Shown piece after piece: positions 19,307 through 21,321 of a stretch of 64,000 nt of DNA (the stretch's first letter is position 1; every line of letters starts with the position of its first letter). The notes under the pieces were generated by a model. The model saw nothing but the letters and a program-made list of their open reading frames with translations. It was not told the origin of the DNA and searched no databases. The stretch covers positions 1 through 64,000 of the forward strand of contig JALUBH010000007.1 in the NCBI GenBank assembly GCA_027050775.1. Direction: 5' to 3'. The position numbers were made by a program, and so were the translations under genes. Source of the DNA: Campylobacteraceae bacterium (GTDB lineage Bacteria; Campylobacterota; Campylobacteria; Campylobacterales; Sulfurospirillaceae).

Positions 19307-19653
19307 AATTTAAGCCTTGATAAAAAGATACTATTTTAGCATATTTAAAAACAAAGAATATATTATGCGTATCATATATGCGCTGATATGATAAAAATTA
19401 ATATCTGTTAACCACACTTAAAAGTGATATAATAATATTGTATAAATAAAAAATAAGGACATAGTCAATGAAATCAGTAAATTTACAAGAAAAATATAAT
19501 AGCTAAGATTTAGAAAATTTCTAACCACCCAAAAGATGAAATAATAAGAGCTTTAAGATTTATTGTAGATAATAATATAAAATATCTTATAAGAGGAAAA
19601 ATTGACATCTTATAGTTATTACAAAATAATTACAAAAAAAGGAGATGTCTACC
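19307..19653. other. Intergenic region before mazEF with antitoxin debris
   Basis: Apart from the broken antitoxin-like frame at 19468-19615, this stretch is AT-rich with no gene that I can support. It should hold promoters for the CAP gene (minus) and mazEF (plus). A TATAAT-like box occurs at about 19427 before the remnant. Confidence 0.5.
19468..19615 (+). pseudogene. Decayed antitoxin-like gene
   Basis: An ATG at 19468 opens a 12-codon frame (MKSVNLQEKYNS) that stops. A shift of one base then gives a readable tail with one in-frame stop: KI-stop-KISNHPKDEIIRALRF and VDNNIKYLIRGKIDIL. The tail resembles the start of the remnant at 20416 (KIEQFFNHSKDEII), so both come from one small antitoxin family. 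Stops and a frameshift mean no protein is made. The family name is uncertain. Confidence 0.55.
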
Positions 19654-19908
19654 ATGACAATGCTTACTAAAATTGGTAACTCACAAGGAATCAGGATTCC
19701 AAAACCTATCGTAAAACAAGCAAATCTGCAAAATTGTGAGATTGAATTTGAAGTTACTAAAAATGGTTTATTATTAAAACCTGTTAGAAAAGTTGTCAGA
19801 AAAAATTGGGAGAAAAATATCAAATATTTTCTTTTAAAAGAAGCAAAAGATGAAGCCATTTTAAATGCTATGCTTGATGATAGTGATTTGGAAAGCTGGG
19901 AGTGGTAG
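19654..19908 (+). CDS. mazE: MazE-type antitoxin (AbrB/SpoVT fold)
   Basis: An 84-residue protein with an N-terminal swapped-hairpin AbrB-like DNA-binding domain (LTKIGNSQGIRIPKPIVKQA) and an acidic C-terminal tail (EAILNAMLDDSDLESWEW) of the kind that wraps and blocks a MazF toxin. I chose the ATG at 19654, 9 bases after GGAG, over 19645, which lies 0 bases after it. Its stop codon is followed at once by the toxin start. It would also repress its own operon by binding upstream DNA. Confidence 0.88.
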   Translation: MTMLTKIGNSQGIRIPKPIVKQANLQNCEIEFEVTKNGLLLKPVRKVVRKNWEKNIKYFLLKEAKDEAILNAMLDDSDLESWEW

Positions 19909-20229
19909 TTGAAAATAGAAAGATTTGATGTTGTTTTAGTCAAACTAAATCCTACGGTTGGACATGAGATACAAAAAACCAGACCTTGCATAGTTGTTTC
20001 TTCAAATGAAATAAATATGTTAAAAACAGCAATAATTGCACCATTAATAAGCAAAGGATTTGATTTTGTTTTCAGACCAAATATATGCTTTCAAGAAAAA
20101 GAGGGATTAGTTTTATTAGACCAAATTAGAGCCGTAGATAAAAGTAGGATTGTTAAAAAGATAGGCAAAGTAGAAAAAGAAAAAGCTAAAGAAATTTCAG
20201 AAATTCTAGTGGAAATGTTTAGAGAATAA
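19909..20229 (+). CDS. mazF: MazF/PemK-type endoribonuclease toxin
   Basis: A 106-residue PemK/MazF toxin with a TTG start directly after the mazE stop. It has the family opening FDVVLVKLNPTVGHEIQKTRPCIVVSSNE, including the catalytic Arg region (TRPCIV), and a later LLDQIRAVDKSRI with the second catalytic zone. It cuts mRNA at short motifs when the labile antitoxin is degraded. The unit appears complete and sits in a rearranged region, consistent with a mobile addiction module. Confidence 0.9.
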   Translation: MKIERFDVVLVKLNPTVGHEIQKTRPCIVVSSNEINMLKTAIIAPLISKGFDFVFRPNICFQEKEGLVLLDQIRAVDKSRIVKKIGKVEKEKAKEISEILVEMFRE

Positions 20230-20415: not shown

Positions 20416-20541
20416 ATGATACAGTTATCAATAAAAGAACTAAAGATAGAACAATTTTTTAATCATTCAAAAGATGAAATTATAAAATATTTTAAAACAT
20501 CAATCGGGATCAGAGGTTCGCTTTTTAAGAAATGCCCTTAG
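20416..20541 (+). pseudogene. Truncated antitoxin-like gene
   Basis: An ATG at 20416 is preceded by AAGGAG at good spacing and encodes 41 residues. The opening IQLSIKELKIEQFFNHSKDE resembles the decayed gene at 19468. The frame then runs into unrelated sequence (SIGIRGSLFKKCP) and stops. The start signals look functional, so a short peptide may be made, but the C-terminal half of the family is missing. A TAAT-rich promoter-like stretch lies at about 20380. Confidence 0.5.
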
Positions 20542-20957
20542 AAAAAAGTGTAACTAAAGCGCGTGGTCTGGATTTACCTAAAAATAACCAATAAAGAGTC
20601 CACAAAACAAACTCCATAAAGTAGCCACATCTCTTTTACAGACTCTACATGTAGATATTTTTTAGTTAAAGTCAAACTCTCGTATCATACACCAATAGCA
20701 ATTTAGCTATCATTTTATAAGAGTTTATTTAGTAGTGATAAATCGGTTCCAAACCCGAAGCGGTTATTTTCTTAAAGAAGATAACTAGCTTGAGGGTCAG
20801 TTAGATTATTACATTAAAAGCTTGTGTGGCAACAAGATCAGTTTTAAACTAGATCGTATTTTACGAGGCAAAGTTAAAGTGTAGTTTATTGCTATAATCA
20901 CGCAGGAGTTATCTCCTGCGCTAACAAGCTCTTAAAATTACTTTTAAGGCTTTCAAA
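20542..20957 (+). other. Non-coding upstream region of the IS110-type remnant, possible bridge RNA
   Basis: This 416-base gap has no protein gene. It contains a CTACATGTAG palindrome (20645-20654) and, nearer the recombinase start, structured sequence. That includes CTTGT-GTGGCA-ACAAG at about 20821-20836, the palindromic stretch GATC-AGTTTTAAACTA-GATC, and a perfect hairpin CGCAGGAG-TTAT-CTCCTGCG at 20901-20920. In IS110-group elements a long non-coding end encodes the bridge RNA that pairs with donor and target DNA. I infer, but cannot prove, that part of 20700-20955 is such an RNA. Confidence 0.35.
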
Positions 20958-21295
20958 ATGTATTCTATCGGATTAGATATCTCCAAGTCAAATATAGCTG
21001 TTTATATTCCAAAAGGTAAGTTGGATATTGAAATCGAAAATAGCATAAAATCATTAAAATCTCTCTATGTTAAACTTAAAGAAAATGGCAAACATACCAC
21101 AGTAGCTCAAATAGCAGTTATGGGAAAACTTGTAATTATCGCTCACTCTTTGTTTAAAAGGGGTGAATTATATGATGAAAATAGGTATTTGAGCTATTGA
21201 TTTATGAGTGTGACTTTACAGTTTTTAGCTTAATTTTTGAAAATAGTAGAATTATTTATGACTTTCCTTAGTTTTTAATAGGGGTTTAAGGTGGC
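20700..21295 (+). mobile_element. Remnant IS110-type insertion sequence (ends approximate)
   Basis: The element is recognised from its fused N- and C-terminal recombinase pieces at 20958-21200 and the structured non-coding sequence on the left. The right part (21201-21295) is AT-rich and ends near AGGGGT...ACCCCT (about 21277-21305). IS110 elements lack ordinary terminal inverted repeats, so the borders are guesses. It sits next to mazEF, antitoxin fragments and a yeiH stump, marking an insertion hot spot. Confidence 0.5.
20958..21200 (+). pseudogene. Internally deleted IS110-family recombinase
   Basis: The 80-residue frame begins like an IS110/IS1111 transposase (MYSIGLDISKSNIAVYIPKG; the DxxK start of the RuvC-like DEDD domain). 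At about residue 44 it jumps to the C-terminal end (TTVAQIAVMGKLVIIAHSLF), which belongs to the Tnp20 domain tail. About 250 residues, including most catalytic residues, are gone while the reading frame is kept. It cannot be active alone but marks an element whose two ends survive. Confidence 0.75.
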
Positions 21296-21321
21296 AACTG
21301 ACCCCTAATATTTTTGCTATT

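What the first reader, a model, noticed from the sequence alone, without database searches (positions are those of the whole stretch)
20700..21295. IS110-type element with deleted recombinase but preserved non-coding end
The frame at 20958-21200 joins the N-terminal start (MYSIGLDISKS) and C-terminal tail of an IS110-family recombinase in phase, with about 250 residues missing. The upstream region has stable hairpins, including CGCAGGAG-TTAT-CTCCTGCG. IS110 elements use a bridge RNA from such an end to choose donor and target. A short derivative that keeps its ends and RNA could be moved in trans by a full-length copy, a non-autonomous bridge-RNA element.
Basis: partly seen in the sequence, partly recalled or inferred. 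Interest (0 to 1): 0.6.

Follow-up and report, generated by a model that had tools for sequence, protein, structure and literature searches.

The report
Recombinase-less IS110 element keeping bridge RNA
A small piece of mobile DNA in a bacterium has lost the enzyme that moves it but still carries the RNA that says where to land, and a second, partly eroded copy elsewhere in the genome suggests it once moved with a borrowed enzyme.

Summary
Window 20679-21297 (619 bp, CT core at both junctions) is an internally deleted IS110-group insertion sequence. Relatives in other Campylobacterales genomes are full length (about 1.36 kb; closest 88%/85% DNA identity). The deletion (738-741 bp, in frame, at a short direct repeat) removed three of the four DEDD residues and the Tnp-domain serine, so the 80-aa remnant cannot be a recombinase. 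All cis parts survive: left end, right end and a bridge RNA whose donor-loop helices keep 22 of 22 pairs and covary across relatives. All four guides match: two match the element's own ends, two match the flanking target (AAAGTCAAACT-CT-GACCCC, a REP-like repeat present about ten times in this genome); each guide covaries with its partner among relatives. The genome holds a second copy with the identical deletion at another site, ending at the same half-target but truncated on the left, plus a left-end fragment. No helper recombinase was found. Best reading: a natural non-autonomous bridge-RNA element that moved at least once after the deletion using a recombinase in trans, and is now stranded. 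Anatomy is shown; post-deletion movement is inferred from two copies.

The parts
20669..20678 (+). left half of the target (AAGTCAAACT), REP-like
   Evidence: same motif left of the element in relatives; ten places with at most one mismatch in own genome
20679..20680 (+). core dinucleotide CT, left junction
   Evidence: register from relatives and target motif
20679..20957 (+). left end (LE) with bridge RNA; TATCAT (-10-like) at 20683-20688
20717..20940 (+). predicted bridge RNA body (closing stem about 20718-20726 with 20927-20935)
   Evidence: minimum free energy fold of 20690-20940, z -5.7
20749..20756 (+). left target guide (CCAAACCC; CAAAC matches the left flank)
20792..20800 (+). right target guide GAGGGTCAG, complementary to CTGACCC of the right flank
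20782..20895 (+). right target guide plus donor-binding loop, match to covariance model R1, 116.6 bits
20826..20833 (+). left donor guide GTGGCAAC, identical to the right end
20862..20867 (+). right donor guide TACGAG, complementary to left end CTCGTA
20958..21200 (+). 80-codon remnant: recombinase N-terminus fused to C-terminus
   Evidence: no Pfam hit
21074..21080 (+). deletion junction, ACTTAAA (near-repeat at both edges in a relative)
21201..21297 (+). right end (RE), ending TTTAAGGTGGCAA
21298..21299 (+). core dinucleotide CT, right junction
21300..21305 (+). right half of the target GACCCC

Best explanation
It is an internally deleted, non-autonomous IS110-group element. Shown: both ends, the CT core and all four bridge-RNA guides are intact, and it sits in a REP-like repeat that its own target guides match. 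Shown: it encodes no working recombinase and none was found in the genome. Inferred: the bridge RNA is transcribed from the -10-like box at the left end; the recombinase of a full-length relative bound it and moved the short element as donor at least once after the deletion, giving the second copy; the helper was later lost, so the element is now immobile until one arrives.
For: Full-length relatives with matching ends: G257:C49, 88.4% over 404 bp and 84.8% over 231 bp, with a 327-aa open frame between. Donor-loop helices: 15 of 22 pairs with compensatory changes, 97.6% of cells paired, 0 of 500 shuffles reach it; the window row keeps 22 of 22. Right target: 26 of 31 elements have at least 4 of 5 Watson-Crick pairs next to the core; 9 guide classes, 0 of 20000 permutations. 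Left donor guide identical to the right end in 29 of 31, over 5 sequence variants. Left target: 0 of 20000 permutations, 34 elements, 13 classes. Right donor guide to left end: 79 of 20000 permutations. Second copy with the same deletion: 395 bp, 99.7% identical, ending at GACCCC, flanks unrelated. In print, recombinase and RNA supplied in trans move an IS1111/IS110-family donor whose centre was replaced (ISEc11, PMC11187229, passages seen), and bridge RNA in trans works for IS621 (PMC11208160, passages).
Against: No helper in the genome: 0 hits to PF01548 and PF02371, and only the two remnants match a full-length protein. The second copy lacks 232 bp of left end, so its left junction cannot be checked. 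No empty site was found in the 9 other genomes of the genus searched. The junction was seen in no other contig of two collections. Relatives' genomes hold decayed remnants without signs of spread.
Confidence: 0.68

Rival explanations
1. Plain relic: a full-length element inserted, lost its middle in place, and the second copy came by homologous recombination or duplication rather than by bridge-RNA transposition.
For: Two other internally deleted copies with both ends (G041:C87, G145:C173) show no second copy; solo right ends and fragments occur in relatives; the second copy is itself truncated.
Against: Searching the second locus with its flanks against the own genome, only 20911-21305 of the window matches: nothing is shared beyond the half-target GACCCC, which is where a guided insertion, not a duplication, should end.
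Confidence: 0.24
2. The same deletion happened twice, independently, at the short direct repeat in two full-length copies.
For: A 7-base near-repeat (ACTYAAA) lies at both deletion edges in a relative.
Against: The copies differ at about 1 base in 395; no full-length copy remains; the other internal deletions use other end points.
Confidence: 0.05
3. The 80-aa fusion protein is what is kept, for example as an inhibitor of a full-length recombinase.
For: The frame stayed open across the junction.
Against: One deletion in three stays in frame by chance; no Pfam match; the copies are too alike to test selection.
Confidence: 0.03

Closest known systems
IS621 (IS110 group, E. coli) and its bridge RNA
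   Same: The 5' guide of each loop reads like the top strand and the 3' guide is complementary to it; short core; REP-type target; the relatives' recombinase matches IS621 by sequence (E 6.9e-26)
   Different: The window copy has no recombinase; other RNA sequence, guides and host
ISEc11/ISEc21 seekRNA elements (IS1111/IS110), laboratory assays in trans
   Same: An element with its centre replaced moves when transposase and RNA are supplied in trans (PMC11187229, passages)
   Different: Engineered there; here a natural deletion that keeps its own RNA
Bacterial MITEs (non-autonomous IS derivatives)
   Same: Ends kept, transposase lost, a second copy present
   Different: No terminal inverted repeats; carries a guide RNA; only two copies

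Membership tests
IS110 group element (IS621-like) | DEDD plus Transposase_20 recombinase | tested here: not met
   window remnant: 0 Pfam families; met by full-length relative L005. So the window copy is a derivative, not an autonomous member
IS110 group element (IS621-like) | structured RNA in the left end with a target and a donor loop | tested here: met
IS110 group element (IS621-like) | guides matching donor ends and target flanks | tested here: met
IS110 group element (IS621-like) | long left end, short right end, core dinucleotide at both junctions | tested here: met
   279 bp LE, 97 bp RE, CT core
IS110 group element (IS621-like) | circular intermediate and RE-LE promoter | not testable with these tools
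   needs PCR or reads
Non-autonomous (MITE-like) derivative | ends shared with an autonomous relative | tested here: met
Non-autonomous (MITE-like) derivative | several copies sharing the deletion at unrelated sites | tested here: inconclusive
   two copies, one left-truncated
Non-autonomous (MITE-like) derivative | helper in the same genome | tested here: not met
   an unassembled short contig could hide one

The most novel reading that the evidence does not exclude
A naturally mobile 'guide-carrying MITE': a DNA element that keeps its own targeting RNA but borrows the recombinase, so its target choice can evolve apart from the helper. In its boldest form the second copy, whose left flank TCAAGCC-AT stands in the register of the target (as AAGCC-AT does in G224:C67), is itself an insertion through a cryptic left end inside the RNA gene, moved with both RNA and enzyme in trans.
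Probability: 0.45. Interest if true: 0.6.

Novelty: new variant of a known kind. Interest (0 to 1): 0.5.

Why it matters
It would be a natural case of what laboratories have engineered: a bridge-RNA element split into a guide-bearing donor and a recombinase acting in trans. It makes testable whether IS110 recombinases act in trans in nature, and it brings a Campylobacterales bridge-RNA family with about a dozen different natural target guides whose rules can be read from the flanks. My searches listed no paper that I recognised as describing a natural recombinase-less IS110 element with bridge RNA; one search was swamped by papers on mites, and only open-licence PMC papers are held.

Tried and rejected
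PreQ1 riboswitch: one sub-threshold Rfam match (24.1 bits against 39) on the minus strand across the right end; the same bases are the conserved right end and target half, so rejected. Pfam on the remnant: nothing. Empty-site search for both loci in the genus: nothing in the 9 other genomes. Search for the deletion junction elsewhere: 0 in genome contigs, 0 in viral contigs (the window's own genome may be left out there). Attempt to read the gene cut by the second copy's left junction: no relatives among fetched loci. A first, wider alignment of left ends (A1) was too uneven to fold and was replaced by A2, for which 3 of 22 candidate cores were dropped (two chance motif hits and the C3 fragment). 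For the left-target and right-donor tests I left out by hand elements whose left end was not trusted (5 named, 6); 34 distinct rows and 38 elements of 47 entered. In one search two of 13 classes (GAGGGAC, GTAAACA) did not beat mismatched pairs; for GAGGGAC the slice ended before the guide. In one search, G003 is a chance right-end hit kept in the 31; G174 and G068 have flanks that do not fit their guides. In one search, three of 26 pairs (G273, G250, G054) and G163 fit poorly. Left ends were found with a motif search, so the apparent TATAAT conservation there is partly circular.

Full report
Observation. The frame at 20958-21200 (80 codons) matches residues 1-41 and 279-324 of a full-length IS110 recombinase from a relative. 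In relative L005 the positions either side of the junction lie 738 bp apart; in L109 (G257) about 741 bp, both multiples of three. A near-repeat ACTYAAA stands at both edges in L109. The lost part holds E56, D98, D101 and the serine of ISKAG (254), counted on L005; that these are the catalytic residues follows from the alignment with IS621 and the described layout of DEDD plus conserved serine (PMC11208160, passages). The remnant cannot be a recombinase.

Ends. Right ends in relatives read TTTAAGGTGGNNACT and then diverge except for a short target half; left ends begin with a two-base core followed by CGTATNAT, after a left flank of the type AAAGTNAARC. This puts the element at 20679-21297 with CT at each junction, 619 bp, against about 1.36 kb in intact relatives (for example 103+115+1145 in G011). 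The flanks read together as AAAGTCAAACT-CT-GACCCC. The same motif stands in this genome at ten places with at most one mismatch (with up to three mismatches 19 places against 14 for the reversed pattern). Two of these flank a Y1_Tnp (RAYT-type) gene on contig C3, so it looks like a REP family; REP targeting by IS110 elements is known (PMC1525189 and PMC11208160, passages).

RNA. Nineteen left-end cores were aligned. The donor-loop structure has 22 pairs; 15 show changes on both sides, 97.6% of cells pair, sliding the partner by 1-3 columns gives 26-37%, and 0 of 500 shuffles reach the value. The window row keeps 22 of 22. A wider alignment of 21 left ends gives 34 pairs, 23 with compensatory changes, including a target loop that holds the left and right target guides on its two sides. 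A model from the 19 cores found 47 matches in 32 of 398 genomes of the order; most of its own rows are among them.

Guides. For 31 of the 47 a right end was found within reach (one, G003, is a chance hit). The left donor guide equals the right end in 29 of 31, across GTGGTAAC, GTGGCAAC, GTGGCGAC, GTAGCGAC and GTGGAAAC. The right target guide pairs at 4 or 5 of the first five bases with the right flank in 26 of 31; with nine guide classes, no permutation of 20000 did as well. Examples: GTGACAC with GTGTCA, GATACAC with GTGTA, GGCAAAC with GTTTG, GAGGGAC with GTCCC. The left target guide scores 6.3 against 4.6 for mismatched pairs, 0 of 20000. The right donor guide follows the left end (TACGAG, TATGAG, TATAAG, TAAGAG), 79 of 20000. 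In the window: LTG CCAAACCC against TCAAACTC, RTG GAGGGTCAG against CTGACCC, LDG GTGGCAAC against GTGGCAAC, RDG TACGAG against CTCGTA. This is the arrangement described for IS621 (PMC11208160, passages).

Copies in the genome. Contig C45:5504-5898 carries the same derivative from window 20911 to 21305 at 99.7% identity with the same junction. It ends with GACCCC and then differs; a search with 1100 bases around it found only that stretch of the window. Its left 232 bp are gone; the break lies inside the hairpin. Contig C3 carries a left-end fragment, 98% over 195 bp. No recombinase domain and no further match to a full-length protein was found in 48 contigs (2.19 Mb, completeness 100). A helper hidden in an unassembled contig is possible, but both short copies lie inside long contigs, which argues against a helper with identical ends (inference).

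Comparison. Of the 47 loci, three keep both ends with a large internal deletion: the window, G041:C87 and G145:C173; most others hold a full-length recombinase or are cut by contig ends, and some are left-end fragments. Only the window's deletion was seen with a second copy in its genome. The closest named full-length relatives are Campylobacterales MAGs (JALVVN010000017, JADGDK010000144).

Mechanism. The element is a complete donor with its own guide RNA and lacks only the enzyme. Experiments in print show that enzyme and RNA act in trans on such donors (passages). Hence the short element should be mobile whenever a matching recombinase is present, and two copies sharing one deletion at unrelated sites, each bounded on the right by the guided half-target, are what one such event would leave. 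That step is inferred. The truncated second copy, the absence of a helper and of an empty site keep confidence moderate.

Noticed in passing
window 19645-20229: MazE/MazF-like (PemK) toxin-antitoxin pair just left of the element (Pfam).
   Followed up: no
window 20507-20524 (minus): A degraded inverted copy of the target motif (3 mismatches) lies about 150 bp left of the element, as in a paired REP structure.
   Followed up: no
L003 1656-2456 (minus), G000:C3: Y1_Tnp (RAYT-type) gene beside copies of the REP-like motif and the left-end fragment.
   Followed up: partly
L109 3060-3126 (G257:C49): The right end is present twice in tandem, about 39 bp apart, at a full-length relative.
   Followed up: no
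L025, L029, L033, L044, L045: Solo right ends of about 30-70 bp without recombinase, next to GACC/GACT-type flanks, in relatives.
   Followed up: partly
L053 (G041:C87), L073 (G145:C173): Two independent internally deleted relatives that keep both ends and the RNA.
   Followed up: partly
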